DNA of 64,000 nucleotides from Porphyridium purpureum (taxonomy: Eukaryota; Rhodophyta; Bangiophyceae; Porphyridiales; Porphyridiaceae): positions 1,984,001 to 2,048,000 of the forward strand of contig VRMN01000001.1 in assembly GCA_008690995.1 (NCBI GenBank). The letters are read 5' to 3'. The translations under genes and the position numbers were made by a program. The notes under the pieces were generated by a model. That model was not told the origin of the DNA. It searched no databases and saw only the letters and a list, made by a program, of their open reading frames with translations. Shown here one piece after another: positions 14,828 to 60,859 of this stretch (its first letter is position 1; each line of letters begins with the position of its first letter).

Positions 14828-15041
14828 GACCTCTTCCGCGAGATTCAAGTGGAGATCTCTATGACCCGTGTTGCGCAGCAGCTGAAGTAGAAGAGGAGGA
14901 GGGAGATCGGTTCCGGAACGGCGCGAGCGCCCAACGTGTTGTGATTACTGCCTGGCAGGGAGGAGTTCTGTTTATGTAGAAAAGCGTCAAACATAGTTGA
15001 GCCGAAGCCGTTGGGGAGGTGAAGGTTTTCGTCGAAATCGA

Positions 15042-16142
15042 ATGCATGTAGGTGCAGAAAAATCAAAAGGCCCTCGGTCCAGGATGCTTGGCCCGTGTGG
15101 AAATGCGGTGAGGAAATTCGTGCTCGGCGATGCGCGCCTGCGGCCCATTCTGGGGTGCGCCGATGTTGTCGCATGCGCAACGCCGCTGTTCTCTCTAATC
15201 ATTGCCATTGGAGCCGGCGAGTATTTGGTGGTTTTGCGTTCGATTTGGTTCGGTCAGGGTGCAGACAGCTCCATGTCATCCGGAATCAAAAACCTCTCGA
15301 TTGCGGCATGGGCATGGATCGTGCTCTTTCAATTCCTGGTGTCCAGTATTTTTGCTTGCTTCGCTCTTTGCGTTCTGGTGGATCCGAGCGTCCGAGCGCT
15401 CGACTTGGACAACGGCTTAGAAGCAGCTCCGAGCCGGACGCCTCGCTTTTGCAGCAAGTGCTCCATACACAAGCCCCCGCGCGCGCACCACTGCAACAAG
15501 TGCGAGGCATGTGTTTTACGCATGGATCATCACTGTGCATACCTTTCCAACTGCGTGGGCCATGCCAACCTCAAGTTCTTTGTGTTGTTGCTGCTTTTTA
15601 GCGAGACTGCATGTGTCTGGAGCGTGGCCGTAAGCTGGCGTCCATTCATGCACGCCATTCGTGTGCACGACCAATTCATGGATAGCCCTTCGAAAAGCCT
15701 GCCGCCTGAGGTTTTCGCAGAGTTCAAGCACATGCCAATCCTGTTTGTATCGTTTACCGTCATCGCAGCCCTCGCCTTTGCGCTCTCTTTCTTTGTACCC
15801 TTCCATCTCTATTTGCTGTGCAAGGATCTAACGACCATTGACCTTGCCCAGGCGTACAGATCGAGAAACAGCCGCGGTGCCAGCAGTACGTCTAGCGTGG
15901 GGGGTGGAGGCAGTGTGCTGGAGAATTTGCGGCTCAACTGTGGAGATGCAGGCTGGTGGTGGTGGTGTGTGCCCGTCCGATACGGTATTCGAAGTCCTCT
16001 GGAATACGGAGTCCAAGACTACAATGTCGCTGTTGCACCCAGCGACGCGCGTGGATACACAGCCGTGACTCTCTCCGATGAGCAGAAACCCGAGAACAAC
16101 TTGCTTACTGTACCCCCTCTTGATGAAGTACAGTGCGTGTAA
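15042..16142 (+). CDS. DHHC-type protein S-palmitoyltransferase
   Basis: The enzyme attaches palmitate to Cys residues of membrane proteins. The Cys-rich domain runs FCSKCSIHKPPRAHHCNKC to the active-site DHHC, with all Zn-binding Cys/His present. Four hydrophobic segments are arranged as two before and two after the Cys-rich domain, the usual topology, placing it in Golgi or plasma membrane. After the DHHC the sequence reads AYLSNCVG where most members have PWINNCIG or similar, so the common Pro-Trp is replaced by Ala-Tyr. The C-terminal tail is Ser/Gly-rich with a Trp run. The frame extends upstream of the first ATG without another ATG, and MLGPCGN is an alternative start 15 codons later. 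Confidence 0.9.
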   Translation: MHVGAEKSKGPRSRMLGPCGNAVRKFVLGDARLRPILGCADVVACATPLFSLIIAIGAGEYLVVLRSIWFGQGADSSMSSGIKNLSIAAWAWIVLFQFLVSSIFACFALCVLVDPSVRALDLDNGLEAAPSRTPRFCSKCSIHKPPRAHHCNKCEACVLRMDHHCAYLSNCVGHANLKFFVLLLLFSETACVWSVAVSWRPFMHAIRVHDQFMDSPSKSLPPEVFAEFKHMPILFVSFTVIAALAFALSFFVPFHLYLLCKDLTTIDLAQAYRSRNSRGASSTSSVGGGGSVLENLRLNCGDAGWWWWCVPVRYGIRSPLEYGVQDYNVAVAPSDARGYTAVTLSDEQKPENNLLTVPPLDEVQCV

Positions 16143-16559
16143 GCAAGACCCGTCCCGCGCGTTTCACGTCATATTTACCAGCATCACGTGAAGGGACCTC
16201 AAGTCGAATAGCCTGCGTGTCGTCTCTAGAATGGGATTGCCGCTCACGATAATGATGATGACCATGATGCCACGGTGCATGCGAGGATTGTGCCAACATT
16301 GATTTCGTTCGCAGCGATGTCGCACACTTGGCACCACGAGCCGTCGGTGGTCTTAGCTTCAGTCATTTCCTCGTCTATAAAAGAGCGTGAAGTCGAATCT
16401 GGCGGATGGCTGCAACAGACATGTAATTCAAGGCGGGAAGAGGAACAGGGAAGAGGATAGTGGCTTGAACTGTTGACGTTAGGGAGTGGACATCGTGTCG
16501 GGTACTGTTTTCCTCGGATTTGCTTTCGGTCAAATATCTACCGGGCTTTGATTGCAGCC
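16143..16559. other. 5' flank of the first Hcp-like gene
   Basis: No gene is seen. The region includes a clear TATA element listed separately, and the short (atg/atgatg) motif near 16250. It presumably holds the 3' UTR of the DHHC gene and the promoter and 5' UTR of the Hcp-like copy. Confidence 0.5.
16376..16383 (+). promoter_or_regulatory. TATA box, Hcp-like copy 1
   Basis: TATAAAAG lies 184 bases before the first ATG of the Hcp-like copy 1. The same octamer stands at a similar distance before copy 2, which supports a real promoter element. Confidence 0.55.
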
Positions 16560-17060
16560 ATGATGCGCGCATCGCCTCTGCTGTTTACGGTTTTGGTCGG
16601 CGCTGCCTGCCTGTCTGTTGCGGACGCTGCCGTTTTTGCTTAGTACGAAGGCGTCAAAGGAGACGTGGCTGCGGAAGGCTTCGTCGGTTGGATTCCAGTG
16701 CAGCCGGCTTTAGTGACCTCTGTGCAGGGCCCATATCAGCTCACGTTCAAATCAAGTGCCGAGGCTATGCGCTTAGTACAGTACATGGTGCAGACGACGC
16801 CGCTGGAAGAGGTGGTGATCGAATTTTATCCGGACGAAGGAGGGTGCACAAGGCTGCCTTATCTTCGCTACAAGCTGAAGAGCGTTCCGGTGACGAGCTA
16901 CTTGTCGTCTGCGGGGACATCTGGATTGCCGACTGAAGAGGTTGCGTTCCTGTACGACGAGATCGAGGGCACCTTTTTGGAAGCCGACGCGGCGTGCTCT
17001 GAAGCGAAGCCGCAGGAGGCGTTCTTTGTCCGTTGTGATCGTTCCACTTCGACACGTTAG
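16560..17060 (+). pseudogene. Secreted Hcp-family (type VI tube fold) protein, copy 1, interrupted by an in-frame stop
   Basis: Starting at tandem ATGs, the frame encodes a signal peptide (MMRASPLLFTVLVGAACLSVADA), then meets a TAG, and continues in the same frame through a complete Hcp-like domain to a normal stop. The domain part reads YEGVKGD..., then TSVQGPYQLTF, VVIEFYPDE, LPYLRYKLKSVPVTSY and GLPTEEVAFLYDEIEGTF. It aligns over its whole length with copy 2, 0.8 kb downstream, at roughly half identity. Because the protein part after the stop keeps all motifs, the gene is either recently inactivated, read through, or affected by a base error. Function in the alga is unknown; see copy 2 for the family. 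Confidence 0.7.
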
Positions 17061-17849
17061 ATTATCTCAGTTTTGAAAAGGCGCCGCACCAATTGACCCT
17101 CGCCACTTGCCACTCGAACATAAAGCATTCCGCGTGGAGTTGTCAAAACAAGCCTGACCATTGACGAGCAGAAAGGTCCAGGTCCGTTTGTCACACAGAA
17201 ACACGCGAAGCCGCACTTGCCCGAGACCGGCACGTCCACGTGAATTGAAATGGCGTAAACTAACAGTACTTATCACTGTACTTTCGGAAAGGCAGACGTT
17301 TTGATTCTTGCTGACCGTGGCACACACGACACGCATTACACGAGATACGCAGCGTGAGATGCTGCAGCTCGCTTGCTGCCACGCTGCGAACATTACAGGG
17401 TCCGACACATCCGTGGCATCAATCACGACACGTACGCAAGCAAGCAAGCCACGAACTCGTCCACTCAAAGGTATTCGACTGCGCGATTCCCACGGTGGAT
17501 TGCGAAGGCTCGGTTCAAAAACCAGCCAGACCGTAGATAAAGAATTTGGGGCACGGCAAGCAGGCTACGGCGCCCTCTGGTGCCTTTTGCCTGGCATGCA
17601 AGCGTGCCAACACTGGCCCGCGCAGACGATGTCAGTTCCATTACACCTCGGGAACCAACAGCTGAGCCCACAAATCTCCTATAAAAGGACATCGTGTCCC
17701 CAACGCTGCGCCTCGACTCGGTCTTTGATCGAAAGGCACGACATCAAAAGAAGAACAAGCCAGAGAGGATCGAGCAAAAGACGGAGGCATCGAAGAAAAT
17801 CGAGTAGTCCTGAGACGGCCAGGGCCTACGCGTCCACTCTTTGAAAATC
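17061..17849. other. Spacer between the two Hcp-like genes
   Basis: About 790 bases without a supported gene. It carries the TATA element of copy 2 listed separately. The 11-base word ggacatcgtgt also occurs in the 5' region of copy 1 (about 16489), perhaps a remnant of the tandem duplication. Confidence 0.5.
17680..17687 (+). promoter_or_regulatory. TATA box, Hcp-like copy 2
   Basis: TATAAAAG lies 170 bases before the ATG of copy 2, mirroring the element in front of copy 1. Confidence 0.55.
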
Positions 17850-18353
17850 ATGCGTGCATCGATCGTGGGAATTCTCGTGCTGCTTTGCGCGGTCTGCGTG
17901 TCGTGTGTGCACGCCGCGGCTTACATAAAGTTCGATGGAGTTGATGGAGAGTCTACGTCGAGCGACGACCCTCACAAAGAATGGATTCCAATCTTGTCTT
18001 CGTCCTTGACATCCGTGCAGGGACCTTTCCGGCTTTCGTTTCTTGCAAGTGCGAAAACCATGCGTCTGGTGCAGCATTTGGTGGCACGTGAACGTCTAAC
18101 GGAGGTGGTCATCGAGTTCGTCCAGGACGATGAGACCCCGCAGAACAAGAGCGATAACTGCGCGCTTCCGTATCTCAGGTACGAGCTCAAGGATGTACTG
18201 ATCAGCAGCTACTCTGTCTCTGGAGCAGCCTCGGGTGTGCCCACGGAGGAGGTCGCATTCAACTATGCTGTCGTTCAGGGAACATTCTATGAAGTAGATT
18301 CTGATTGCACATCTTCCAGGCCTGCCCAAGCGTTTTCCGCGATGAATCAGTGA
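17850..18353 (+). CDS. Secreted Hcp-family (type VI secretion tube fold) protein, copy 2
   Basis: The 167-residue product starts with a clear signal peptide (MRASIVGILVLLCAVCVSCVHA), so the mature protein begins near AAYIKF. The mature part carries the Hcp family signature: YIKFDGVDGESTSSD then HKEWIPIL at the N-terminus; TSVQGPFRLSF and VVIEF in the middle; and LPYLRYELKDVLISSY followed by VPTEEVAFNYAVVQGTF at the end. In bacteria this fold forms hexameric rings that stack into the tube of type VI secretion, related to phage tail tube protein. Here it is a eukaryotic-type secreted protein without any sheath, spike or ATPase gene nearby, so a borrowed extracellular or wall/vesicle protein is the best inference. 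A Cys pair present in both copies could form a disulfide. Confidence 0.85.
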   Translation: MRASIVGILVLLCAVCVSCVHAAAYIKFDGVDGESTSSDDPHKEWIPILSSSLTSVQGPFRLSFLASAKTMRLVQHLVARERLTEVVIEFVQDDETPQNKSDNCALPYLRYELKDVLISSYSVSGAASGVPTEEVAFNYAVVQGTFYEVDSDCTSSRPAQAFSAMNQ

Positions 18354-18497
18354 AAACGGCCGAGCACTGTTCATTCATGGATGACACAGCCACAATATCT
18401 CACGGCATCCCTTGTGCACGCAAGCCCTAAGCGATGAGACTTCGTGAAAACCCCTGATCAAATTGAATTCCCCAATCTTCAGACAATAAAGTACGAC

Positions 18498-20331: not shown

Positions 20332-21735
20332 CTACTCGGACGGATTTTTCAACAGCCGAAAGAGCCCTGCAGCCTCTCGAATGCGACTGAACTCGATACA
20401 GAACGCTTGGACCTCGACAAATAGGTCCTGCACGTGAATGTTCTTGTTTCGGATCAAGTTCTGCAGAAAGACGCTCACCAGCCTCACAAGACGGTTTTGC
20501 ATGTACTTGTCGCGGATGTTCTCGCAGCTGTGTATGCAATTACTAATATACATATGCACGAATTCAGACGGCAGGTCGACCGAGCTGATGAGGCGGTTGA
20601 CGACTTCCATGCTGTGGATACTCATGTCCATTGCCAGCAGTGCGTCCAAAAACTCACTGATGCGGTTACTACTTGACATGCGTAACATCATTTCCACCGC
20701 AATTTCCGGATTGTACTCGACCAGGTCAGGCAGCTTACTTGGAGTGAGACCAACGGTGAAGACCATGCCTGGGTCCCGCTCGAACTGGCTGGCCAGTATT
20801 TGTTGCTGTGCTGGTTGCAGCGGCGACTTGAAGGCTTTGGCCATGAGCTCGTGGATCTCTGCACCGCGTGTCTCGGCGGATGTATCGTGAGACATGTCCC
20901 AAACAGAGTCGCAAACTGGTTCCGGTTGCAGCCACATGAGCTCTGAGTCTTGGATGGGTAATAATGGTGGCACTGGCCGGATGAAGCGAGGTACAAAGTC
21001 ATCGGTGCGCAGGGAGTCCGCCCCACCCACAGCTTCCGCAAACGACGCCGGTTGGTGAAAAGAGGAAGCCTTTCCATCCTCAGGAGCTGGGATAACGTTG
21101 CTGACGAGGTGTGATGGGCGAAACCCTGATTGAAATACGGTCTGCTCCAGTCTGGCCTGAAAAGTAGCACGCAATGTGTGTATGGCATCTGAATCCGGCG
21201 TAATACTGGGCGAAACGCCCTCTACGTCTTTCGCGGCAGCAACGTGTAGCACATTGGCTAGTTGCGCGGGCGTCATTTCCATAAAGTTGCGAGGCAGAAC
21301 AGAGTGTTTCTTCTCATTCTGGTTGCCCGTCGATGGCAAAAGCGCGGCAATAAATAAGCGCTCCTCATATCTCGTTGCGCTACCAAGAGCATCAAGGAGA
21401 AGCACCGTCGCGGGTGACTTGGAGTAAACCTCCAGAGCTTCTGCGGCCTGTGTGTCAAAGACAAATTCCGCGGTCCGATGCACGGAACGTCCAGCTTTCA
21501 CCAACACTACGTTCCACAATGCAAACCACCCCAGCAACGCGGCCGATAACGGTGAGTCTCGAAGAAGCCCGAGCTGGATTATCGCAGCAATGGCGGCCGC
21601 CAGCGCGCCATCATCATGAGACGTGTGTTCGGGCCCAAAAACCGACGTGATAATCGCAAGGAATGAAGTCCCTTGAAGCACGCCCTGCCGCTCATCCAGC
21701 GCATCTAGGAGTCGAGATATCCCATTTGCGCCCAT
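20332..21735 (-). CDS. CNOT11: CCR4-NOT complex subunit 11
   Basis: CNOT11 (C2orf29, DUF2363) binds CNOT10 and the N-terminus of CNOT1 in the cytoplasmic mRNA deadenylase complex. The 467-residue product contains the diagnostic C-terminal block starting at [17 protein letters not shown], then [30 protein letters not shown], and [17 protein letters not shown] with [15 protein letters not shown] at the end. The N-terminal half is the helical scaffold part. The start at [15 protein letters not shown] is the first ATG of the frame. It has a few long loops (Ser/Pro) between the halves. No transit peptide is seen. Confidence 0.92.
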
Positions 21736-21908
21736 AATCGACTGTCTCACCTTTCCAGCGCCAATCGACACTTAGATGAACCGCCTCCCGCACCCTCACG
21801 CGACAGCCGATGAAGTGAACTTTCCCGCGATTTCAGTTCGCACCTTGTTTCTGAAGAATCGCCCGTTTTTATTCGTCATTTTGGCCTCGATCAATCTACG
21901 TGCCGTGC

Positions 21909-24478
21909 AGAATCATGCAGCACCAAACGAAGTCAGGAAGCGGGAGATCTCGGCTTCAAGCATGGGCGCCAGCGCAAGCGCGGCGGCGACGGACAAATGA
22001 TGGTCGTCGATGTCACACACTTGGAATCCTTCAAACACAGCCAAGCTGAACTCCTTACGAATCTCGCTCGTCATAGAATCACTCGCGGAATCGTTCGACG
22101 TGCTCAGCATGGCGGACTCCGTCTCTGCAGGTCTCCCGCTCTTCGCTTTCACCTCGAGAGCAGGCAAAAAGTCTATCACCCCAACCTCAATCTCCGACTC
22201 TGTCAACAGCCGCAGAATCTCCAAGTGACGAAAGGACCACTCCGGGTCCATCGCAAACGTCTTCGGACAGTTTTGCAGCCCGCGGTTCTCGATGCAACGG
22301 ACCAACTTGTCTGGAAGGTGTGGGGGGTTCAGAATGAGCACCACACGATGCTTAAGCGATCGAAGCCACTGCACGGTCTCGCGCAGCCGGAAACGACATG
22401 CCATCAATTTGCCAGACTCTTCCGCAATCCACTGGTTGGGCCTCCTGCACCATCCGTCCATGTATTCAGTGACGAAAATGACGCTCGGCTCCATGGCCTC
22501 AAGCTTTTTCTTCACGGAATCGAAGAGGGCTTTGCATTCAGAAACCTTGCCACCGCTAACTGCTTCCCAGTCAAACATCAGGTCCGCACGGCACCCGCTC
22601 CATGCGTGCATCATAAACGACACGTTCCGGTTCACTCCAATGTTGTGAATCGCGGGACGCAAAGCTAGCATCATCGAGTCCCCGACAAACACCGCCTTGC
22701 TGCGAGCTCCGTGCTCGACAGCGCCGAGCTCGCAGTTCTGGCTCCTGTCTGCGTTAGTCTTGTTTCCCTTGAAGCAGTAAATGTCGTGCTTTGGAAAAAC
22801 CGGGAGCTCAATGGGGTACGGAAAGCAGGAGCGCGCCACCGCATCAGAAAGTGGGTCTCCAAATGCCAGCGCTTCCCCCTTGTCTTTACACATGCGTGTC
22901 AAGGAATAGATGTCGCCTGCCCCAGCGTCCTGCCATCCTTCCGCGGGATGGGTTGCATACGCTGCTGGTGCACCCCCAAATAGCGCCACGCTGTCGACTC
23001 GGATGCCGGCTTGCGCCCCCAGCACCATGCTCACAGTAGCCGCAATGCCGCCTGCCATAGCCAGCATTCGCAGTGCGCTCACAGACCCGCCCGACGACCC
23101 GCCCGACGACCCGCCCGACGACCCGCCCGACGACCCGCCAAGCCGCAGTCTCGCCTCCACCGCTTCGTACTGCACCGTGCCCAACATCATCGACCCCACG
23201 AACAGCAGCACTCCAACAACCACGCGCGGCACCGAGCATGCCCAGCTGCCATCTCCAGACACAAGGCAGTACCCGTCAAACGCCACGCGTAGCGGCCAGT
23301 GCACCAGGTACACCGAGTACGACACCTTGCCCACGAACCGCAGCAAACGGTGCGACAGCACCCACGTGCACAGCCAGCTGCGCGGAAACAGGATCAGCAC
23401 CGCACCGCCAACCACACACGGAAAGATCGCCACCGCGTTCACGCGTCCCACGGCTTCCTCGCTCACAAACGCACACGATCCCACAATGGCAAAGAGCCCG
23501 CAGAACGAGCACACATCGACCCACAGGCCTTCCCACCCACTCACAATACCGTACAGCTCCACCAGAACACCACCCACGCAGAACTCCCACGCCCGGAACG
23601 GAACCAGGAAGAACACCGCAGACCCGTCCGTCTTGGACAGCACCTGGCTGGCCACGAGCGACGCTACCCCAACCACGCTGATCCCCAAGCTCCGCCGCAA
23701 CGAAACCACACTCCAAGTGCTTTCTTCATCTCCGCCGCTCCAAACCACGCACCGCGCCGCAAACGTGAGCACGATCAGCACTGCCGGCCACACCACGTAG
23801 AACTGCTCCTCCACCGACAACGACCACGTGTGCAGAAGCGGCTTGGTACCCGCGCTCGCATCCCAGTACCCGGCCTCGCTGTAGAACACAAAGTTCGACA
23901 CCGACGCCAGCGAGCCCAGCGCAGACACGGCGTACGGCTGCACCCATGACCGTGGCATGCACGTCAGCGCATACACCGCCGTCCACGCCACCGTGAACAG
24001 TGAGCTCGGGTACAGACGCCAGAAGCGGCGGACGTAGAACTGGCCCAGCGCCGCGCACAGGTTGCTTGGCACGCCTGTGCGCAGCATGGACGAATACAGG
24101 TTGCGCGTGATCAGAAAGCCCGACAGAACAAAGAACAGGTCCACGCCCAGGAAGCCACCGGGCATGTACAGGTCAAAGTGAAACGCGAGCACGCCCACCA
24201 GCGCAAGCGCGCGCAGGCCGTCCAGATGCTCGAGGTATATGTGGGTATGTGCGCTCTTCACAGGCGAGTGCAGCTCGTCCTCCGCACGGCCGGGCTGCGT
24301 GCTACTCCAGTCCTTGGCGTTCTTGTGGTCTGTCTGCGCACGTGCCGGGCCCTCCAATCCAGGGATCGAGACGCACACCGCGCCTGGCGCACCAGCATGC
24401 TCGAGAGGAGCACGCTGGTGCAGCTCGTGCTGTCTTGCAGTCTGAGAAAGCTCACTCGCAGGCGATTGCTCAAGGTCT
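21909..24478. repeat. Segmental duplication, copy 1
   Basis: This 2.57-kb stretch is almost identical to 26567-29135 on the same strand; I see roughly 2-3 percent differences by eye. It covers nearly the whole acyltransferase gene but not its N-terminal codons. Confidence 0.9.
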
Positions 24479-24549
24479 CGGTCTGCAAGCGCGCCATTCG
24501 GCACTGCCTTCGGCAGCTCCGTCTGGCGCGTCATCCAAGCGCTCCACAT
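21913..24549 (-). CDS. Membrane acyltransferase-3 (OafA type) fused to an SGNH hydrolase domain, copy 1
   Basis: The 878-residue protein has an N-terminal acidic/Gln-rich cytosolic part (about 110 residues), then the acyltransferase-3 membrane domain starting YLEHLDGLRALALVGVLAFHFD with the catalytic His in AFHFD and GGFLGVDLFFVLSGFLITR. About ten membrane spans follow. A linker of repeated GGSS units precedes a last span and an SGNH esterase-type domain: block I VFVGDSMM and the catalytic Asp/His in DIDDHHLSVA. In bacteria this fusion (OafA, OatA) O-acetylates cell-surface sugars; here surface or Golgi polysaccharide is the likely substrate. Transfer from bacteria is plausible. The first ATG giving MWSAW is chosen as start. 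Confidence 0.88.
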   Translation of the reverse strand: MWSAWMTRQTELPKAVPNGALADRDLEQSPASELSQTARQHELHQRAPLEHAGAPGAVCVSIPGLEGPARAQTDHKNAKDWSSTQPGRAEDELHSPVKSAHTHIYLEHLDGLRALALVGVLAFHFDLYMPGGFLGVDLFFVLSGFLITRNLYSSMLRTGVPSNLCAALGQFYVRRFWRLYPSSLFTVAWTAVYALTCMPRSWVQPYAVSALGSLASVSNFVFYSEAGYWDASAGTKPLLHTWSLSVEEQFYVVWPAVLIVLTFAARCVVWSGGDEESTWSVVSLRRSLGISVVGVASLVASQVLSKTDGSAVFFLVPFRAWEFCVGGVLVELYGIVSGWEGLWVDVCSFCGLFAIVGSCAFVSEEAVGRVNAVAIFPCVVGGAVLILFPRSWLCTWVLSHRLLRFVGKVSYSVYLVHWPLRVAFDGYCLVSGDGSWACSVPRVVVGVLLFVGSMMLGTVQYEAVEARLRLGGSSGGSSGGSSGGSSGGSVSALRMLAMAGGIAATVSMVLGAQAGIRVDSVALFGGAPAAYATHPAEGWQDAGAGDIYSLTRMCKDKGEALAFGDPLSDAVARSCFPYPIELPVFPKHDIYCFKGNKTNADRSQNCELGAVEHGARSKAVFVGDSMMLALRPAIHNIGVNRNVSFMMHAWSGCRADLMFDWEAVSGGKVSECKALFDSVKKKLEAMEPSVIFVTEYMDGWCRRPNQWIAEESGKLMACRFRLRETVQWLRSLKHRVVLILNPPHLPDKLVRCIENRGLQNCPKTFAMDPEWSFRHLEILRLLTESEIEVGVIDFLPALEVKAKSGRPAETESAMLSTSNDSASDSMTSEIRKEFSLAVFEGFQVCDIDDHHLSVAAALALAPMLEAEISRFLTSFGAA
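23084..23139. repeat. 12-bp minisatellite coding for a GGSS linker, copy 1
   Basis: Four complete units of gacccgcccgac and one partial. It encodes the Gly-Ser linker between membrane domain and last span of the acyltransferase, in frame. Unit number is the same in both gene copies. Confidence 0.9.
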
Positions 24550-24864
24550 CGCGGCTCCCACGAAGAACACCTAGCTCGCTCTGGAACCGACCTTGACGGT
24601 CGTTCCAACATGCAAGCTTGCGCCCTTGTCATCCCTGTGCGTGCCTTTAAGTCGGCGGGCGCGCGGCGCTCCTTGTTTGGGGCGGTTTCCTGCCAGACAA
24701 CGGAGACTGCATAGTGTGGAGCGCGCTGTTGTGATTTTCCACGTCCGGAACAGAATCAACACCGCGCGTTTCGTTTACGCCGTGTCCACAGTTGGCCCAC
24801 ACTCCCCCCCCTCCATCGCATTCAAAGGCATGGTTTGACGTGCACAGTTCGAAACACGCAGTTT

Positions 24865-26566: not shown

Positions 26567-29135
26567 AGAATCATGCCTTACCAAACAAAGTCAGAAGGCG
26601 GGAGATCTCGGCTTCAAGCATGGGCGCCAGCGCCAGCGTAGCGGCCCGGGATAAATGATGCTCATCTATATCATGCACTTGAAATCTTTCAAACACAGCC
26701 AAGCTGAACTCCTTACGAATCTCGCTCGTTTTCGAATCGCTCGCGGAATCGTTCGACGTGCTCAGCATGGCGGACTCCGTCTCCGCAGGTCTCCCGCTCT
26801 TCGCTTTCACCTCGAGAGCAGGCAAAAAGTCTATCACCCCAACCTCAATCTCCGACTCTGTCAACAGCCGCAGAATCTCCAAGTGACGAAAGGACCACTC
26901 CGGGTCCATCGCAAACGTCTTCGGACAGTTTTGCAGCCCGCGGTTCTCGATGCAACGGACCAAATTGTCTGGAAGGTGTGGGGGGTTCAGACTGAGCACT
27001 ACACGATGCTTAAGCGATCGAAGCCACTGCACGGTCTCGCGCAGCCGGAAACGACATGCCATCAATTTGCCAGACTCTTCCGCAATCCACTGGTTGGGCC
27101 TCCTGCACCATCCGTCAAAGTATTCAGTGACGAAAATGACGCTCGGCTCCATGGCCTCAAGCTTTGTCTTCACGGAATCGAAGCGGCCTTTGCATTCAGA
27201 AACCTTGCCACCGCTAACTGCTTCCCAGTCATACATCAGGTCCGCACGGCACCCGCTCCATGCATGCATCATAAACGACACGTTCCGGTTCACTCCAATG
27301 TTGTGAATCGCGGGACGCAAAGCTAGCATCATCGAGTCCCCGACAAACACCGCCTTGCTGCGAGCTCCGTGCTCGACGGCGCCGAGCTCGCAGTTCTGGC
27401 TCCTGTCTGCGTCGGTCTTGTTTCCCTTGAAGCAGTAAATGTCGTGCTTTGGAAAAACCGGGAGCTCAATGGGGTACGGAAGGCAAGAGCGCGCCACCGC
27501 ATCTGAAAGTGGGTCTCCAAATGCCAGCGCTTCCCCCTTGTCTTTACACATGCGCGTCAAGGAATAGATGTCGCCTGCCCCAGCGTCCTGCCATCCTTCC
27601 GCGGGGTGGGTTGCATACGCTGCTGGTGCACCCCCAAAGAGCACCACGCTGTCGACTCGGATGCCGGCTCGCGCCCCCAGCACCATGCTCACAGTAGCCG
27701 CAATGCCGCCTGCCATAGCCAGCATTCGCAGTGCGCTCACAGACCCGCCCGACGACCCGCCCGACGACCCGCCCGACGACCCGCCCGACGACCCGCCAAG
27801 CCGCAGTCTCGCCTCCACCGCTTCGTACTGCACCGTGCCCAACATCATCGACCCCACGAACAGCAGCACTCCAACAACCACGCGCGGCACCGAGCATGCC
27901 CAGCTGCCACCTCCAGACACAAGGCAGTACCCGTCAAACGCCACGCGCAGCGGCCAGTGCACCAGGTACACCGAGTACGACACCTTGCCCACGAACCGCA
28001 GCAAACGGTGCGACAGCACCCACGTGCACAGCCAGCTGCGCGGAAACAGGATCAGCACCGCACCGCCAACCACACACGGAAAGATCGCCACCGCGTTCAC
28101 GCGTCCCACGGCTTCCTCGCTCACAAACGCACACGATCCCACAATGGCAAAGAGCCCGCAGAACGAGCACACATCGACCCACAGGCCTTCCCACCCACTC
28201 ACAATACCGTACAGCTCCACCAGAACACCTCCCACGCAGAACTCCCACGCCCGGAACGGAACCAAAAAGAACACCGCAGACCCGTCCGTCTTGGACAGCA
28301 CCTGGCTAGCCACGAGCGACGCTACCCCAACCACGCTGATCCCCAAGCTCCGCCGCAACGAAACCACACTCCAAGTGCTTTCTTCATCTCCGCCGCTCCA
28401 AACCACGCACCGCGCCGCAAACGTGAGCACGATCAGCACTGCCGGCCACACCACGTAGAACTGCTCCTCCACCGACAACGACCACGTGTGCAGAAGCGGC
28501 TTGGTACCCGCGCTCGCATCCCAGTACCCGGCCTCGCTGTAGAACACAAGTTCGACACCGACGCCAGCGAGCCCAGCGCAGACACGGCGTACGGCTGCAC
28601 CCATGACCGTGGCATGCACGTCAGCGCATACACCGCCGTCCACGCCACCGTGAACAGTGAGCTCGGGTACAGACGCCAGAAGCGGCGGACGTAGAACTGG
28701 CCCAGCGCCGCGCACAGGTTGCTTGGCACGCCTGTGCGCAGCATGGACGAGTACAGGTTGCGCGTGATCAGAAAGCCCGACAGAACAAAGAACAGGTCCA
28801 CGCCCAGGAAGCCACCGGGCATGTACAGGTCAAAGTGAAACGCGAGCACGCCCACCAGCGCAAGCGCGCGCAGGCCGTCCAGATGCTCGAGGTATGTGTG
28901 GGCGCGTGCGCTCTTCACAGACGAGTACAGCTCGTCCTCCGCACGGCCGGGCTGCGTGCTACTCCAGTCTTTGGCGTTCTCGTGGTCTGTCTGCGCACGT
29001 GCCGGGCCCTCCAATCCAGGGATCGAGACGTACGCCGCGCCTGGCGCACCAGCGTGCTCGAGAGGAGCACGCTGGTGCAGCTCGTGCTGTCTTGCAGTCT
29101 GAGAAACCTCACTCGCAGGCGATTGCTCAAGGTCT
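26567..29135. repeat. Segmental duplication, copy 2
   Basis: Direct-repeat partner of 21909-24478. One base shorter overall because of the frameshifting deletion in the coding region. Confidence 0.9.
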
Positions 29136-29314
29136 TGCTCGGGCGGTAACGCTCTGCTCTGGTCATGGTCTTGTTCACGCCCCAACGGAGCTTCGTGCCC
29201 ATGGTCTCGCTCGACACGCTCGCCGTGAACTGCTCCCAGTAGACGCGCCTTTCTGCGCGCCACCTTGGCAGATGCTTTCCACATCACATTTGTCTGCCAA
29301 AAGCAACGAAGCAT
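26571..29314 (-). pseudogene. Acyltransferase-3/SGNH gene, copy 2, frameshifted
   Basis: It has the same domain order as copy 1 and almost the same sequence, but one A is missing from the run AAA at about 28547-28549. This splits the gene into an N-terminal frame (to about 28433) with the cytosolic part and first spans, and a C-terminal frame carrying the remaining spans, linker and SGNH domain. The SGNH motifs are intact (VFVGDSMM; DIDEHHLS). The N-terminus before DLEQSPAS differs from copy 1: it is about 26 residues longer, very basic and His-rich, though both begin Met-Trp-x-Ala. The start is the ATG at 29314 or the next at 29284. A base error in a homopolymer is as likely as true inactivation. 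Confidence 0.75.
27742..27797. repeat. 12-bp minisatellite coding for a GGSS linker, copy 2
   Basis: Same unit and number as in copy 1 of the acyltransferase gene. Confidence 0.9.
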
Positions 29315-38365: not shown

Positions 38366-39443
38366 CTCTCCTTCTCTCTCTCCCCCTCCCCTTCTCCCTC
38401 CCCCGTTCCCTCTCCTCCCTCTCACCGCCCAAGCCCTCGCTTCACCCCACTCCAATCTGGCCCCCATGTCACAAGAGCTCATTCAATCACACCACCGCCA
38501 TTTCCACGACTACCCTTTACCACTACTACTACTACTACCACTACTCCTACTACTGTTCCTAATAAAAACCATCTAACTGCATAGAAAACACACCGCTTCT
38601 CTCTCAACCCACGCGGGGGTTCCCGTCGCCGACGACTCCCCGCCTTCTTCCCTCTTCCTCCCCTAGCTCCCCCCTCCCTCCCTCCCCATCCACCTTTTCA
38701 CCTTTTCACCTTGTTCCTTTAAGAAACAAAAAAAAAACCCTTCTAGCCTCTCCACCTCCTTCTTCAGTATTTAAGCCTACTACGTTGCTGTACAACCCTT
38801 GTACTAAACATGCGATGCAATTCACATTACATCGTCATCCTCCTCTTCTTTTGTCCTCGTGTGTGTGTGTGTGTCCTGTACTTTGTTGAACGCAGCAACG
38901 GTGAGTTGATTGTACTCACGTGCTTGTGGGTACAGCGGTTTGGGGCGCTCGGGCGCTCCGGTTCCTCATGCGCGCTGCTTCCACCATCTACGGCAGGTCC
39001 AACGCCGGTCGGAAACGGTTGCGGTTGTGGTTGCGGTTTGGGATTTGGCCGCTTTGGATGGGGTTTCTGGTGGGGAGGGGGGCGGGAATGCGAAAGCTCG
39101 GTTGTGCAGCGAGCAGGAGCGCGTGAGCCAGAGCTGGCTCCAACGCCGCACGCACGTTGCGCGCCGCAAACGCTCGGAATGGATGGTTCTGCTTCAGACA
39201 CCCGTGCGCGCGCACGTGGACGCCGCGCACGTTGGCCGAAACGGCAGCGACAGAGCGCCACGCATCATAGCAGACCTGACAGGATTTCTCCCGCGCCACC
39301 CTGGCCAGACAGCTTGCGTATAAGTAGCCGTGAGATTTCTTCTTGTTCAGCGGGAGGTCTGAGAACGTGAAGGATACTGCAGTGGAGTGCAGGTCGGGTT
39401 GCTACGAGATACGGTCAAGGTGAGCAGGCGTTGGAACTGCAGA
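38366..39443. other. Divergent promoter region, about 1.1 kb, pyrimidine tracts
   Basis: This separates plastid L10 and an ABCG gene. It has long C/T-rich tracts (about 38365-38420 and 38640-38700), an act repeat and possible TATA elements (tatttaag near 38769; gtataagt near 39317). A 186-codon frame at 38810-39370 has a Gly/Cys/Arg-rich product without any domain and is rejected. Confidence 0.5.
38521..38555. repeat. act trinucleotide repeat
   Basis: A run of act/acc units, slightly degenerate, in the L10 upstream region. Confidence 0.75.
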
Positions 39444-41487
39444 ATGGAAGGCGCGCACATCATAGAAGTGCAAGGCCTGGGTGACGCCGTCCAGCCCAGT
39501 GGCACGGACCTCGGCGCGCCAGGCAAAGTCGCAAAGAGCGGAAGTAGTGAAAGCGACCAGTCGCAGTGGTTTGGCACACAAGCGCCGCAGAAAGCTGGCA
39601 TCGACTTTGATCCATACTTCACGGAACATGATGATATCGAAGCGCAGCGCCACGACGAGACATCGTTCACAGAGCGTCGCCGAGTTGATTTGCACTGGAA
39701 GGACTTGCGCTTCGACGTCGGAATCAAGCGCAAGCTCGGCGGCAAGGTGGACGACTCGAACCGCAAGACAATTCTCAGGGGCATTTCAGGCGAGGTGCGA
39801 GCGGGCACCATGCTGGCCATCATGGGCAGTTCGGGCGCTGGCAAGACAACGCTCCTCAATTTGCTGGCGGGTCGGCTGACGAGCAGCAAGGACTATGAAG
39901 TCTCAGGCGAGATCTTGGTGAACGGCGCCAAGCGCAACCCATCCACATTTAAGCGGCAGTCGGCGTACGTCGAGCAGGAAGATAAGATCTTTGCCGAAGT
40001 GACCGTGTACGAGCAGCTCAAGTTTGCCGCCGACTTGCGTCTTCCCAAAAAGATGCCTTCGGACGTCAAGGAGCAGCGCGTGCTGAGCACGATTCAGGAA
40101 CTCGGCTTGATGAAGGTCAAGGACTCGTATGTGGGCGGCGAGCAGGTGCGCGGCGTGTCTGGCGGCGAGAAGAAGCGAGTGAACGTGGGAACCGAGCTTG
40201 TGACAGACCCGTCGCTGCTGTTCCTTGACGAGCCGACGTCCGGGCTTGACAGCTTCAACGCGCTGAACGTGATGTACACGCTGCGCAAACTGGCGTCGAA
40301 CGGGCGCACGATTGTGACCACGATTCACCAGCCGCGCTCGAACATCTTTTCGATGTTTGACTACTTTTGCCTGCTAGCGGAGGGGCAGGTGATGTTCTTC
40401 GGGCCGGCGCAGGACGCGGTCGAGTACTTTGCGAGGCTGCACTTCCGGTGCCCGGAACGGTTCAACCCGGCGGACTATTTCGTGGACCTGGTTTCGGTGG
40501 ACCCGCGTTATCCCGCAGGCCGAGGGCAAGTCGCGCGCGCGCATCGAATACTTTGCGGAGGAGTTTGAAGAGACCAAGAAAACCATTGATGCGGACTTCA
40601 GCAAAGTAGAGTCGACAGTATCTTCTGACACGGCGAAGAGCAAGTTTGCGTCAAGCTGGACTTACGAATTTGGCAAGGTGCTGAAGAGACAGTGGCAATT
40701 GACAACGCGGGAGCGCGTCGCTAATACTGCGCGCATTGGGCAGACGGTCTTTTTCGCCATCTTGTTGGGTCTCATTTGGCTGAACAATGGCCGGGTCGAT
40801 TGGAGCGATCCTGATGTTGCCAGTTCACAAGCATTTAACATTGGGGGCGTAATCTTCTTCACTGTCGTGAATCAAGCGTTTTCGGGTATCTTCAACGTAC
40901 TGTTCGTCTATCCACTCGAGCGAAACGTCGTGCTCAAGGAGCGTGCGTCCGGCACGTACCGCGTTTCCACCTACACCTTTGCTCGCATGGTAGCCGACCT
41001 ACCCCGGTCCTTGTTCCAGGATATCTTTTTCGTGTCGGTCTTGTACTGGATGGTCGGACTTCGCGCTGACGTAGGCGCCTTTTTCCTGATGTGTTATATT
41101 GTGCTGATGGTCGCGATGATCACAGAGGGCTTCACGTTCGCGCTCATGACTGTGTTTCCGGATCCGCAGGCTGCTGCGGCTCTGGCGCCGGTTTACGTCA
41201 TCCTCTCTATGTTGTTCGGCGGGTTCTTGATTGACGTGGAAAGCATTCCGGCCGCAGTGGCGTGGATACGATGGGTGTCATTTGTGAACTATGCATTTGG
41301 CGCGGCTATGCAGAACCAATTTGGATGTGGCCCAGAATGCGGTGAGCAAATCCTCTCGAGTCCGTTCCAGGTTGAAATCAGTCTTACGGCTGGTTGCCTT
41401 GCGCTGCTTGGATTTAATGTTTTCTTCCGTGTCCTGTGGTACGTCATCTTGCGCGTGAACGGTCCGAAGCTCGCCAAGGCGTTGTAG
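39444..41487 (+). pseudogene. ABCG half-transporter, copy A, frameshifted
   Basis: The ATPase domain is N-terminal, as in the ABCG (white/breast cancer resistance) family: Walker A GSSGAGKTT, signature VSGGEKKR, Walker B LLFLDEP and the His in TIHQPRS. Six membrane spans follow in the second half with YPLERNVVLKERASGTYRVS between spans, typical of eukaryotic ABCG. One extra base near 40508-40511 (cgttatcc against cgtaaccc in copy B) shifts the frame between ATPase and membrane parts, leaving two overlapping frames. Both parts keep all motifs. Start is the first ATG (MEGAHIIEVQ). A base error or recent inactivation are both possible. Confidence 0.8.
39770..40605. repeat. Inverted repeat arm 1 (ABCG ATPase region)
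   Basis: Nearly identical to the reverse complement of about 42590-43430. Identity falls sharply on both sides within the coding region, as in a gene-conversion tract. Confidence 0.75.
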
Positions 41488-41709: not shown

Positions 41710-43761
41710 TTACAGCTCAGACGCGAGCTTGGGACCCGTGAGTCTCAGAATGGTGTACCACAAGACACGGAAAAACACGTAAAAGCCGAGCAACGCAAGA
41801 CAACCTGTGGCAAGCGAAATCTCGACGGTAAATGGGTCGGTGAGCAGAGCCTCCCCACATTCTGGGCCACATCCAAACTGGTTGATAATCAGGGTTTGAA
41901 ATGCATAGTTGATAAAGCTCACCCAGCGGATCCAACTGATCCAATCGTATATGGCGTCCGGATTGATGAGAAATCCACCGAAGAGCATAGACAAAATAAT
42001 GAATACAGGCACAATGGCACTGGCCGCCTGCGGATCGGGCAAGACAGTACTGATGCAGAATGTGAGGCCCTCGGCAATGTTTTGCGTCATGAACACCACG
42101 TACAGCATAACGAAAAAGGGTCCAGCTTCCGAGCGGAAACCAACCATGAAGTAAATGATCACAACGAATAGCAGAACTTGTAAAAGTGTGCGCGGAAAGT
42201 CAGCCGTCATTCGAGCCAACACATATGCAGACACGCGATACGTGCCAGACGCACGCTCTTTCAGAACAACACTCCGCTCAAGAGGATAAACAAACAGCAC
42301 GTTAAAAACGCCTGCAAACGCCTGGTTGATAGAAATGAAGAATACAATGCCACCAATATTGAAAGCTTCCTGACTCGCAACCACTGGATTGCCCCAGTCG
42401 ATTCGACCATTGTTCAGCCAAATCAGGCCCAGGAGAACAGAGAAAAATATTGTCTGGCCGAAGCGCGCGGTGTTCGCAATTTTCTCTCGCGTATTTAACT
42501 TCCACACCCGCCCTGTGAGTTTCGAGTACTCATGGAACCAATTCGATGCGTATTTGCTCTGATGCTCTTGCTGCACCGTTGAATCGACCTTGCTGAACTC
42601 CGCATCAATGGTTTTCTTGGTCTCTTCAAACTCCTCCGCAAAGTATTCGATGCGCGCGCGCGACTTGCCCTCGGCCTGCGGGTTACGCGGGTCCACCGAA
42701 ACCAGGTCCACGAAATAGTCCGCCGGGTTGAACCGTTCCGGGCACCGGAAGTGCAGCCTCGCAAAGTACTCGACCGCGTCCTGCGCCGGCCCGAAGAACA
42801 TCACCTGCCCCTCCGCTAGCAGGCAAAAGTAGTCAAACATCGAAAAGATGTTCGAGCGCGGCTGGTGAATCGTGGTCACAATCGTGCGCCCGTTCGACGC
42901 CAGTTTGCGCAGCGTGTACATCACGTTCAGCGCGTTGAAGCTGTCAAGCCCGGACGTCGGCTCGTCAAGGAACAGCAGCGACGGGTCTGTCACAAGCTCG
43001 GTTCCCACGTTCACTCGCTTCTTCTCGCCGCCAGACACGCCGCGCACCTGCTCGCCGCCCACATACGAGTCCTTGACCTTCATCAAGCCGAGTTCCTGAA
43101 TCGTGCTCAGCACGCGCTGCTCCTTGACGTCCGAAGGCATCTTTTTGGGCAGTCGCAAGTCGGCGGCAAACTTGAGCTGCTCGTACACGGTCACTTCGGC
43201 AAAGATCTTATCTTCCTGCTCGACGTACGCCGACTGCCGCTTAAATGTGGATGGGTTGCGCTTGGCGCCGTTCACCAAAATCTCGCCTGAGACTTCATAG
43301 TCCTTGCTGCTCGTCAGCCTACCGGCAAGCATGTTGAGGAGCGTTGTCTTGCCAGCGCCCGAACTGCCCATGATGGCCAGCATGGTGCCCGCTCGCACCT
43401 CGCCTGAAATGCCCCTGAGAATGGCCTTTCGATTTGAGTCGTCTGTTTTCCCGAGTTTTTTGTGCTTCACGCCTACATCAAACGACAGGTGCCGCCAGCG
43501 CAAGTCCACTCGGCGGCGTTCCGTGAACGACGTCTGCCCGTGCTTCTCGCCGTCCTCTCCCAAGTCCAGCTCTGCAGTTTCCGTGAAGAACGGGTCAAAT
43601 TCCAGCCCTTTCGTGCCTTGCATATCCGTCGGAGCCTCGACATCCTCGAGCATCACATCCGAAGCGCGCTCACCTCCATTCCACGCCATGGCTTTCGCAT
43701 CCGCGCCGGCATTCGCCTGTGCTTCCGCGGCCGCCACACTCGCATACGCCGCTGCGTCCAT
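41710..43761 (-). CDS. ABCG half-transporter, copy B
   Basis: This 683-residue protein is a complete ABCG half-transporter: N-terminal ATPase with Walker A GSSGAGKTT, signature VSGGEKKR and Walker B LLFLDEP, then six membrane spans ending at FFRVLWYTILRLTGPKLASEL. It would work as a dimer to export lipids, sterols or other hydrophobic compounds, probably at the plasma membrane. It is convergent with copy A (stops about 220 bases apart). The ATPase part is nearly identical to that of copy A, whereas the N-terminus and membrane half share only about two thirds of residues. Confidence 0.95.
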   Translation of the reverse strand: MDAAAYASVAAAEAQANAGADAKAMAWNGGERASDVMLEDVEAPTDMQGTKGLEFDPFFTETAELDLGEDGEKHGQTSFTERRRVDLRWRHLSFDVGVKHKKLGKTDDSNRKAILRGISGEVRAGTMLAIMGSSGAGKTTLLNMLAGRLTSSKDYEVSGEILVNGAKRNPSTFKRQSAYVEQEDKIFAEVTVYEQLKFAADLRLPKKMPSDVKEQRVLSTIQELGLMKVKDSYVGGEQVRGVSGGEKKRVNVGTELVTDPSLLFLDEPTSGLDSFNALNVMYTLRKLASNGRTIVTTIHQPRSNIFSMFDYFCLLAEGQVMFFGPAQDAVEYFARLHFRCPERFNPADYFVDLVSVDPRNPQAEGKSRARIEYFAEEFEETKKTIDAEFSKVDSTVQQEHQSKYASNWFHEYSKLTGRVWKLNTREKIANTARFGQTIFFSVLLGLIWLNNGRIDWGNPVVASQEAFNIGGIVFFISINQAFAGVFNVLFVYPLERSVVLKERASGTYRVSAYVLARMTADFPRTLLQVLLFVVIIYFMVGFRSEAGPFFVMLYVVFMTQNIAEGLTFCISTVLPDPQAASAIVPVFIILSMLFGGFLINPDAIYDWISWIRWVSFINYAFQTLIINQFGCGPECGEALLTDPFTVEISLATGCLALLGFYVFFRVLWYTILRLTGPKLASEL
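42590..43430. repeat. Inverted repeat arm 2 (ABCG ATPase region)
   Basis: Partner of the arm in copy A. Boundaries are judged by eye. Confidence 0.75.
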
Positions 43762-50107: not shown

Positions 50108-51313
50108 ATGTCGACCGCGGCGCCCGGGAATCTGGACGGCGACCTGTCTGCGTCGCTGCAGGGCATGAAGGTCGAGGAGGTGGGCGATCATCACAAGTAC
50201 ACCGACGAGCGCGAAATCGACTACGGGGAGCACGCGCCGGACAGCGGCGTGTCCGTGATTAAGGTGGCAAAGGAGCTGCTCGGGAGCGTCAAGAAGGGCT
50301 CGGATGTCACGGGCGTGAACCTCCCGGCTTCGGTGCTGGACCCCATGAGCTCGCTGGAGAAGGGCGCAAAGTCGCTCCAGCGCGGCGAGCTCATTCCGGT
50401 GATCTGCAGCATGAAGACGCCCGAGGAGCGCTTCCTCGGTATCGTCAAGTTTCAGCTAGCCGGACTGCCAAAGGAGCGGTTTGGCAAGAAGCCGTACAAC
50501 CCGGTTTTGGGAGAAGTCTTCCGCTGCTGCTTCAAACACAAGGACAGTTCGGTCACAATGCTGTACGCAGAGCAGGTCTCGCACCATCCGCCGATCACGG
50601 CGCTCCATCTGCACAATCCGACGCACGGCTTCACCATGAACTCGTTCATGCGGCCTGAACCAAAATACTGGGGAAACTCGGTCGAGGTGCGGCTGTCTGG
50701 TCTGATCCGGATCTCATTGGACAAGTACAATGAGACATACGAGCTCGTGCGCCCGCAAATCTGGACCAGCGGCCTCCTCGGCATCGGCAAGCAGCGCGTT
50801 GAGTTTTTGGGTGAAACAACGATCCGATGTGAGGCGAGCGGGCTCGAAGCCTCTTTTGAGTACAAGGGGAAGGGCATGATGGGCATGCGCGGAGACGCCA
50901 ACGTAGTAACGGGCACGGTGAAGGAAATCGCGTCAGGCAAGACTTTGTATGAGATCAACGGGATCTGGGACCAGCAAGTCAAGGTCAAGGACGTGCGAAC
51001 AAAGCAAGAGTCGGTGCTGTTTGATTATGAACAGGTGAAGAAGGACTATTCGATGAAAATGTGGGTGCCACCCAAGGAAGACCTGGAGCCAAACAACTCG
51101 CTCGTCTTGTGGGCCAAGTGCTCCGAAGCGATCTGGGCTGCAGACACACCTGGGGCAAACGAGGAGAAGAAGCTGGTGGAGGACTACCAGCGCTCTCTTC
51201 GAAAGAAACGTGAGGAAATGAACATTGTTTGGGAAAGCGCGTACTTTGATGTAGATGGCGATGGGTACAAGTTCAAGTCTCACCTGGAGGACCGCCTCAA
51301 GGCGGCAAATTAA
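50108..51313 (+). CDS. Oxysterol-binding protein-related protein (short type)
   Basis: ORP proteins carry sterols and phosphoinositides between membranes. The 401-residue product is almost only the lipid-binding ORD domain, like yeast KES1/OSH4. It has the fingerprint EQVSHHPP at 155-162 and the lid-proximal KPYNPVLGE at 128-136. The C-terminus carries RKKREEMNIVWESAYF and ends FKSHLEDRLKAAN, as in short ORPs. No PH domain, FFAT motif or ankyrin repeats are visible. The N-terminal 45 residues are acidic. Confidence 0.94.
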   Translation: MSTAAPGNLDGDLSASLQGMKVEEVGDHHKYTDEREIDYGEHAPDSGVSVIKVAKELLGSVKKGSDVTGVNLPASVLDPMSSLEKGAKSLQRGELIPVICSMKTPEERFLGIVKFQLAGLPKERFGKKPYNPVLGEVFRCCFKHKDSSVTMLYAEQVSHHPPITALHLHNPTHGFTMNSFMRPEPKYWGNSVEVRLSGLIRISLDKYNETYELVRPQIWTSGLLGIGKQRVEFLGETTIRCEASGLEASFEYKGKGMMGMRGDANVVTGTVKEIASGKTLYEINGIWDQQVKVKDVRTKQESVLFDYEQVKKDYSMKMWVPPKEDLEPNNSLVLWAKCSEAIWAADTPGANEEKKLVEDYQRSLRKKREEMNIVWESAYFDVDGDGYKFKSHLEDRLKAAN

Positions 51314-55690: not shown

Positions 55691-56082
55691 TGTTGAACAG
55701 GCGTGCCCGAAAGAACCGTGGGGATGGTGTTACCGAAGGTGAGCGCCATGATGATTTGCAAGTGAAGACTGCTATTCTCCTGTATCACCTTACTTCCTTT
55801 ACTGAAGCCCTACGCATGCAATCGTGGGGCGAGGCGCTCTTTATATAATGCGGCGGTGTGCCCTGCAGGGCAGGTGAAGGCAACACGCGCTGCATGTGCG
55901 GACGTGCTTGTCCCCGAGAGTAATTGCACGGCAGCCCGGACGGGTTGCGACGCCCTGCCAGCACGGCAAGGGGTCGTCACGCCCTTTCCGCCTTTTGCGC
56001 CATCCGCAGGACACGTCGCGGTTCGCGACCCCACGTGCTCCGGCTCCTGCATAAGGTGGCTGTGTACAGTGATATCTTCACA
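55691..56082 (-). repeat. 3' LTR of the copia element
   Basis: 392 bp, starting tgtt and ending ttcaca on the plus strand, so with the usual TG...CA ends. It is identical to the other LTR and carries the tail of the polyprotein frame. Confidence 0.95.
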
Positions 56083-60822: not shown

Positions 60823-60859
60823 GTGTGCCTCCAGATCAGAGCGCCAGCTGCGCGGAAAA

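What the first reader, a model, noticed from the sequence alone, without database searches (positions are those of the whole stretch)
16560..18353. Tandem pair of secreted Hcp-family (type VI tube fold) genes in a eukaryotic, probably algal, genome
Two adjacent genes encode proteins with eukaryote-style signal peptides followed by a domain with the complete Hcp signature at both ends (YIKFDGVDGES; then YLRYELKDVLISSY and PTEEVAFNY). Hcp is known as the bacterial type VI secretion tube, related to phage tail tube protein. No other part of such a system (sheath, spike, baseplate, ATPase) lies in the window, and flanking genes are plainly eukaryotic. A secreted ring-forming protein taken from bacteria and reused by an alga, perhaps in the cell coat or against microbes, would be new to me.
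Basis: partly seen in the sequence, partly recalled or inferred. Interest (0 to 1): 0.82.

Follow-up and report, generated by a model that had tools for sequence, protein, structure and literature searches.

The report
Secreted Hcp-fold protein in red alga
A red alga's nuclear genome carries an apparently exported relative of the ring protein that bacteria use in their type VI injection tube; it was most likely acquired from prokaryotes that already exported it without an injection machine, and its tandem twin has an early stop.

Summary
Copy 2 (17850-18353, 167 aa) is a genuine Hcp-family protein: PF05638 55.8 bits, cut-off 23.5; a confident model (pLDDT 87) matches solved Hcps over residues 21-167. 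Copy 1 (16560-17060) has an in-frame TAG at 16641-16643, right after its leader, and is probably a pseudogene. The segment lies on a 5.7 Mb contig among eukaryotic genes of, very probably, Porphyridium purpureum. Its genome shows only these two Hcp places and no match to four other type VI families. The best-scoring relatives are leader-bearing Hcps of prokaryotes; genomes with that kind mostly lack type VI markers (TssC 3 of 24, against 23 of 24 with leaderless Hcp only). A leaderless source is not formally excluded. Bacterial leader-type genes are often tandem too, but the algal pair arose by its own duplication. The algal proteins lack most of the loop that joins Hcp rings and have two unusual cysteines. 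I read copy 2 as an extracellular Hcp ring, not a tube part; expression, ring formation and role are untested.

The parts
17850..18353 (+). Copy 2: intact gene, 167 aa, signal peptide plus Hcp domain (residues about 24-167)
17850..17918 (+). Probable signal peptide of copy 2 (about residues 1-23; MRAS, hydrophobic core, ..VHA); exact cleavage site by inspection only
   Evidence: sequence; leader-bearing relatives have the same ..A-AAYIKFDG junction
16560..17060 (+). Copy 1: interrupted copy (probable pseudogene); leader 16560-16640, remainder 16644-17060
16641..16643 (+). In-frame TAG stop in copy 1, directly after the leader
16376..16383 (+). TATAAAAG box upstream of copy 1 (consensus match only)
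17680..17687 (+). TATAAAAG box upstream of copy 2 (consensus match only)
18485..18490 (+). AATAAA downstream of copy 2 (possible poly(A) signal, consensus match only)
18009..18026 (+). Short turn (residues 54-59) at the place where bacterial Hcps have the extended loop L2,3
   Evidence: (strands 50-53 and 60-65) against (strands 57-59 and 80-85 in the Luteolibacter model); spacing counts

Best explanation
Copy 2 encodes an exported Hcp-fold protein of Porphyridium purpureum that works outside any type VI system. Shown here by computation: Hcp profile and fold; nuclear gene in a eukaryotic contig; four type VI partner families without a match in the genome; the best-scoring sequences are leader-bearing Hcps of prokaryotes; the two algal copies are each other's closest kin; copy 1 carries an early stop; the inter-ring loop is largely missing and two unusual cysteines are present. 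Inferred: an ancestor of the alga took one gene of the leader-bearing, type VI-independent kind from a prokaryote (Verrucomicrobia-like is the best guess), leader included; the gene duplicated in tandem; copy 1 later decayed. Copy 2 enters the ER through its leader, folds as an Hcp barrel, assembles into rings (probably hexamers), and is released to the cell surface or mucilage, where single rings, not long tubes, act as a structural or binding element of the coat.
Against: No expression, proteome or localisation data were available. Leaders were called by eye, without a dedicated predictor. The place beside leader-type Hcps is not significant against trees that put the alga with the leaderless kind (p-AU 0.213; 0.326); 17 leader-type rows lie on the other side, with the leaderless rows; and the nearest relative changes between trees (P0010/Luteolibacter, P0002). 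Over more than half of its length copy 2 is at most about 40% identical to any listed protein. Ring formation was not tested; known Hcps can be weak oligomers (EvpC is dimeric at low and hexameric at higher concentration, PMC2944823 passages). Seven of the ten relatives scanned show no export-linked Pfam module. The decay of copy 1 raises the possibility that the locus matters little.
Confidence: 0.6

Rival explanations
1. Direct domestication of a type VI tube protein: the alga took a leaderless TssD from a bacterium with a type VI system (for example a planctomycete) and added its own signal peptide.
For: The AU tests do not reject trees with the algal rows beside leaderless Hcps (p 0.213; 0.326). 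Leaderless relatives also score well (P0013, P0015, P0019), and three leaderless rows lie in the same set as the alga.
Against: The three valid free trees place the alga next to leader-type rows; the best-scoring homologues carry leaders with the same junction; the NCBIfam TssD model scores 15.0 bits against a cut-off of 58.9.
Confidence: 0.2
2. Extracellular defence or competition protein: copy 2 is released against bacteria that live in the algal mucilage.
For: Export predicted from sequence; prokaryotic origin. No direct evidence.
Against: No second domain in the 167 aa (one Pfam family only); among ten leader-type relatives or partners scanned no toxin family was found and three showed anchor- or matrix-type modules.
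Confidence: 0.12
3. Decaying, functionally unimportant acquisition: copy 1 is dead and copy 2 is on the way out.
For: TAG in copy 1 and its long end branch, 1.19 against 0.12 for copy 2.
Against: Copy 2 is fully open, with a TATA box and AATAAA nearby; differences between the copies are concentrated at third positions; the short branch of copy 2 suggests continued constraint.
Confidence: 0.15
4. Bacterial contamination or misassembly.
For: Prokaryotic family; no relative labelled as eukaryotic in the listings.
Against: 5.7 Mb contig of an alga whose phycobilisome linker matches PDB 6kgx_d9 over 342 of 342 residues; eukaryotic genes on both sides; GC3 0.61 and 0.64, within the range of five neighbours, 0.56-0.77; no near-identical bacterial sequence listed (best about 40% over more than half the length).
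Confidence: 0.02

Closest known systems
Type VI secretion tube protein Hcp/TssD (PF05638; solved for example as 1y12, 3eaa, 3v4h, 7fcf)
   Same: Profile match, complete beta-barrel fold, N- and C-terminal signatures.
   Different: Has a leader; no sheath, TssK or VgrG match in the genome; extended loop L2,3 largely missing; below the NCBIfam TssD cut-off.
Leader-bearing Hcps of prokaryotes mostly without type VI markers, e.g. Luteolibacter marinus (P0005/L007), a Nitrosopumilus MAG (P0046/L006), Verrucomicrobiia, Omnitrophota, Woesearchaeota and Dehalococcoidia MAGs
   Same: Leader ending at ..A-AAYIKFDG in most; no TssC in 21 of 24 genomes; tree neighbourhood; often tandem.
   Different: Only about 30-40% identity; the bacterial partner gene has a C-terminal extension and is not the origin of algal copy 1; algal loop shorter, two unusual cysteines.
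[not shown]
   Same: Related barrel fold.

Membership tests
Hcp superfamily (Pfam PF05638) | Profile score above Pfam's gathering cut-off | tested here: met
   copy 2 55.8 bits, copy 1 piece 31.9 bits, cut-off 23.5
Hcp superfamily (Pfam PF05638) | Hcp beta-barrel fold | tested here: met
   [not shown]
Hcp superfamily (Pfam PF05638) | Ring (hexamer) formation | not testable with these tools
   only monomers can be predicted here
Type VI tube protein TssD | NCBIfam TIGR03344 above its cut-off | tested here: not met
   15.0 bits (copy 2) and 16.6 bits (copy 1 piece) against 58.9
Type VI tube protein TssD | No classical signal peptide (as stated for EvpC/Hcp in PMC2944823, passage) | tested here: not met
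   hydrophobic leader with ..VHA before AAYIKFDG, by inspection only
Type VI tube protein TssD | Encoded in a genome with sheath, baseplate and spike genes | tested here: not met
   PF05943, PF05591, PF05936, TIGR03361: no match at E up to 1 in G000; other parts not searched
Type VI tube protein TssD | Extended loop L2,3 that contacts the next ring (PMC4650826, passages) | tested here: not met
   21 residues between W45 and S67 against 36-40 in 33 leaderless rows; 6-residue turn in the model against a 20-residue gap in the Luteolibacter model
Leader-bearing, type VI-independent Hcps of prokaryotes | Leader directly in front of the Hcp domain | tested here: met
   same ..A-AAYIKFDG junction; by inspection, no dedicated predictor used
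Leader-bearing, type VI-independent Hcps of prokaryotes | Phylogenetic grouping with that set | tested here: inconclusive
   beside leader-type rows in the free trees, but the alternative is not rejected (p-AU 0.213 and 0.326)
Leader-bearing, type VI-independent Hcps of prokaryotes | Tandem partner gene with a C-terminal extension (10 of 21 single-domain leader loci, not a strict requirement) | tested here: not met
   algal copies are sisters at 100/100 and neither has an extension; bacterial partners

The most novel reading that the evidence does not exclude
A eukaryote has domesticated an Hcp ring as an extracellular protein. It descends from a wide family of exported Hcps that works apart from any injection machine and that my paper searches did not find described (tandem pairs in bacteria and a Nitrosopumilus, 7-8 domains in one protein in Thermoplasmatota). 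The algal form has given up the loop that stacks rings and has a cysteine in the 93-106 loop and one at 153; by strand order these may lie on opposite ring faces and could staple rings by disulfide bonds in the oxidising cell coat.
Probability: 0.3. Interest if true: 0.78.

Novelty: new variant of a known kind. Interest (0 to 1): 0.6.

Why it matters
Hcp is known as a moving part of an injection machine. A leader-bearing Hcp in an alga, and the leader-bearing Hcps of archaea and bacteria whose genomes mostly lack the machine's markers, suggest that the ring is also used as a free-standing extracellular building block. If so, many database entries named 'type VI secretion effector/tube protein' are something else, and the alga offers a eukaryote in which the free role could be tested.

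Tried and rejected
Contamination was considered and rejected (contig length, neighbours, composition). An intron that would remove the TAG in copy 1 was considered by hand: the stretch before the stop ends like a 3' splice site (gtttttgcttag), but in-frame GT donors within the leader would cut away the leader core, and the ATG I noticed between the TATA box and the gene (16406) opens only a six-codon frame; I did not adopt it, and no RNA data exist here. Stop readthrough was considered unlikely from context (recalled). Transfer of the bacterial pair as a pair is not supported by the tree with partners. Viral contigs gave 2 loci of leaderless type at 28% and 24% identity (L064, L065); not followed. 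PHROGs: a family of unknown function at E 1.2e-8 and one chance-level row. Paper searches for a eukaryotic or exported Hcp gave nothing on the point in what was listed; the library holds only open-licence papers. A protein with an intron-like insert (P0088) was looked at as a possible second eukaryote and left open. Tail-tube families appear lower in the VIA list; their weaker rank is no proof of distance.

Limits of the counts: the leader/leaderless labels are mine, read. The 24 'leader' genomes include G021 and G023 (L058, L060), whose leaders are doubtful and which supply 2 of the 3 TssC matches; G023 also holds a leaderless locus (L018). L010 lacks a visible start. Four Chloroflexota/planctomycete rows (L012, L026, L031, L043) look more like membrane anchors with a spacer than like cleaved leaders. 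The TssC and TssK searches were given 50 of the 58 loci (left out: L039, L040, L042, L046, L049, L051, L052, L063). Many of these genomes are MAGs, so absence may be incompleteness. Tree rows were chosen: 46 of the 58 loci, 37 of the 125 proteins then held, and 2 algal rows; one search dropped 13 of these rows (12 leaderless) and added 11 partners and 11 repeats of the multi-domain proteins; one search dropped 19. The bootstrap had not settled. The tree used the wrong frame for copy 1 and is discarded.

Full report
WHAT IS THERE. Copy 2 runs from ATG 17850 to the stop at 18351-18353 and encodes 167 aa with a hydrophobic leader followed by AAYIKFDGVDGES. It matches PF05638 with 55.8 bits (cut-off 23.5), profile positions 1-126 of 129. 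Copy 1 starts at ATG 16560, has a leader, and meets TAG at 16641-16643; the rest is open to 17060. Its open piece 16665-17057 matches PF05638 with 31.9 bits. The two copies share 50% identity in the MAFFT alignment of copy 2 with the open piece, or 46-48% by other alignments.

WHERE IT IS. The window is G000:C43:1984001-2048000, on a contig of 5,717,864 bases in a 22,164,627-base genome. Neighbours include a DHHC palmitoyltransferase (14997-16142), CNOT11 (20332-21771, minus strand) and, further off, an oxysterol-binding protein (50108-51313). A phycobilisome linker from the same genome aligns without a difference over all 342 residues of PDB 6kgx_d9; that 6KGX is the phycobilisome of Porphyridium purpureum is recalled, not shown by the call. 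GC3 of the copies is 0.61 and 0.64; five neighbours range from 0.56 to 0.77. TATAAAAG lies upstream of each copy (16376, 17680) and AATAAA downstream of copy 2 (18485); these are consensus matches only. Contamination is very unlikely.

NO INJECTION MACHINE FOUND. In the whole genome PF05638 finds only these two places. VipB/TssC, VipA/TssB, TssK and VgrG (TIGR03361) find nothing at E up to 1, while each search was positive in the E. coli control genome. Other type VI families were not searched.

RELATIVES. In three searches of the 5.8-billion-protein set (the last two list 120 of 203 and 120 of 1424 matches) no listed protein other than the window's own is more than about 40% identical over more than half the length; higher percentages occur only over a fifth to two fifths of it. 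The organisms named in the listings are prokaryotes (Luteolibacter, Aureliella, Novipirellula, Nitrosopumilus, planctomycete MAGs); most rows name no organism, so eukaryotic ones among them cannot be excluded. The best-scoring relatives have a leader and then AAYIKFDGVDGE or a close variant, as copy 2 does.

TWO KINDS OF PROKARYOTIC HCP. A scan of one genome per species gave 58 loci. By their N-termini most fall into a leaderless kind, MAA-YIKFDG, or a leader kind. Among 48 genomes (50 of 58 loci), TssC/VipB is found in 3 of 24 with the leader kind and in 23 of 24 with only the leaderless kind; TssK in 3 of 24 and 24 of 24. The three differ in part: G011 and G023 have both, G021 has TssC only, and G007 (a Woesearchaeota MAG) has TssK only. 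Fisher p values are about 4e-9 and 2e-10; they treat genomes as independent, which they are not fully. Members of the leader kind include Nitrosopumilus, Woesearchaeota, Verrucomicrobia, Omnitrophota and Dehalococcoidia. Of ten leader-type proteins or partners scanned with Pfam, three show export-linked parts: TSP3_bac in the partners of L055 and L062 (the latter, 23.1 bits, under the cut-off of 25) and a dockerin at its cut-off in the Aeoliella protein L053. PEP-CTERM is annotated on P0037.

TANDEM PAIRS. A second Hcp domain lies within 400 bases, on the same strand, in 11 of 21 single-domain leader loci (one of them, L054, fragmentary) and in 1 of 33 leaderless loci. In the ten clear leader loci the second open frame is longer than the first; seven of these ten partners were also scanned with Pfam. 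Two Thermoplasmatota MAGs have 8 and 7 Hcp domains in one open frame of 1452 and 1261 aa. The algal pair is not this pair: in the three valid trees its members are sisters at 100/100, also when ten leader-type partners are included. So one gene was acquired and then duplicated in the algal lineage.

TREES. In 85 rows the alga lies in a set of 33 leader-kind, 3 leaderless and 2 algal rows (96/84); the other side holds 30 of 33 leaderless rows but also 17 leader-kind rows, so the two kinds are not two clean clades. With partners, the neighbours are P0010 (92/87) and then Luteolibacter (90/94); in a reduced set the neighbour is P0002, and the smallest supported set beyond the pair has 5 leader-kind rows (95/91). 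Tests that force the alga beside the leaderless rows give p-AU 0.213 (leaderless rows alone) and 0.326 (with the two leader-kind rows nested among them), so this is not rejected. A Verrucomicrobia-like donor is a best guess only.

ALGAL CHANGES. Between W45 and S67 both algal copies have 21 residues; 33 leaderless rows have 36-40 and 50 leader rows 28-45. In a wider set of 218 other rows the shortest have 22 (P0025) and 24 (P0037), median 38, so a short loop is rare but not unique. In the model this is a 6-residue turn between strands 50-53 and 60-65; in the Luteolibacter model the corresponding strands are 20 residues apart (57-59 and 80-85). By position this is loop L2,3, which in Burkholderia Hcp1 contacts the next ring and whose double substitution left only hexamers (PMC4650826, abstract and passages), and the loop that protrudes about 20 A in EvpC (PMC2944823, passages). 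A cysteine in loop 93-106 and one at 153 occur in both algal copies; in the wider set a cysteine in the first region occurs in 1 other row and in the second region (150-156) in 2 others, never both. That the two lie at opposite ends of the barrel is my reading of the strand order, not a measurement.

SELECTION. Between the copies, 43, 36 and 85 of 126 codons differ at positions 1, 2 and 3, so amino acids were constrained for much of the time since duplication. Synonymous sites are saturated (no usable dS). The end branch of copy 1 (1.19) is ten times that of copy 2 (0.12).

HOW IT PROBABLY WORKS. Export by the leader is well supported by sequence, though no predictor was run. Assembly into rings follows from the fold and from known Hcps but is untested. 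Tube formation through the usual loop is unlikely. A structural or binding role in the algal coat is the most economical guess, given the matrix- and anchor-type modules on some exported relatives; it is an inference.

NOVELTY. No paper on a eukaryotic Hcp, or on an exported type VI-independent Hcp family, appeared in what the searches listed; of these I saw listings and abstract beginnings only. PMC5874247 (passages) classifies Hcps of Gram-negative bacteria, and its main text holds no mention of 'signal peptide'. I rate this a new variant of a known kind.

Noticed in passing
L006, L007, L008, L010, L013, L035, L047, L048, L055, L062: Leader-bearing Hcp genes in bacteria and a Nitrosopumilus sit in two-gene tandem units whose second gene is longer; this looks like an extracellular Hcp system that I did not find described.
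   Followed up: partly
L057:8108-12463 and L059:9743-13525: Thermoplasmatota MAGs encode single proteins with 8 and 7 Hcp domains in a row, possibly a covalent ring.
   Followed up: partly
L053:10001-10819: An Aeoliella Hcp with a dockerin-type repeat and a C-terminal tail that looks like a PEP-CTERM signal (the tail by eye).
   Followed up: partly
protein P0088 (metagenomic): An Hcp with a leader and a charged insert of about 58 residues absent from five relatives; it looks like an unspliced intron, so it may be a second eukaryotic Hcp.
   Followed up: partly
window 21913-24570 and 26571-29314, minus strand: Two tandem acyltransferase-3/SGNH genes, nearly identical in long stretches by eye; the second is split over two overlapping frames, which suggests a frameshift.
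   Followed up: no
window 52894-54993, minus strand: One open frame joins an O-methyltransferase domain (PF01596) to a deoxynucleoside kinase domain (PF01712), which looks like an unusual fusion.
   Followed up: partly
window 55810-60528, minus strand, with similar ends near 55.8 and 60.6 kb: By eye a Copia-like retrotransposon frame of 1572 aa whose terminal sequences recur at the other end, next to the start of a short-chain dehydrogenase-like gene at 60596-61783.
   Followed up: no
window 39387-41487 and 41710-43761: By eye two ABCG-type transporter genes on opposite strands with almost identical nucleotide-binding parts; the first is split over two frames.
   Followed up: no
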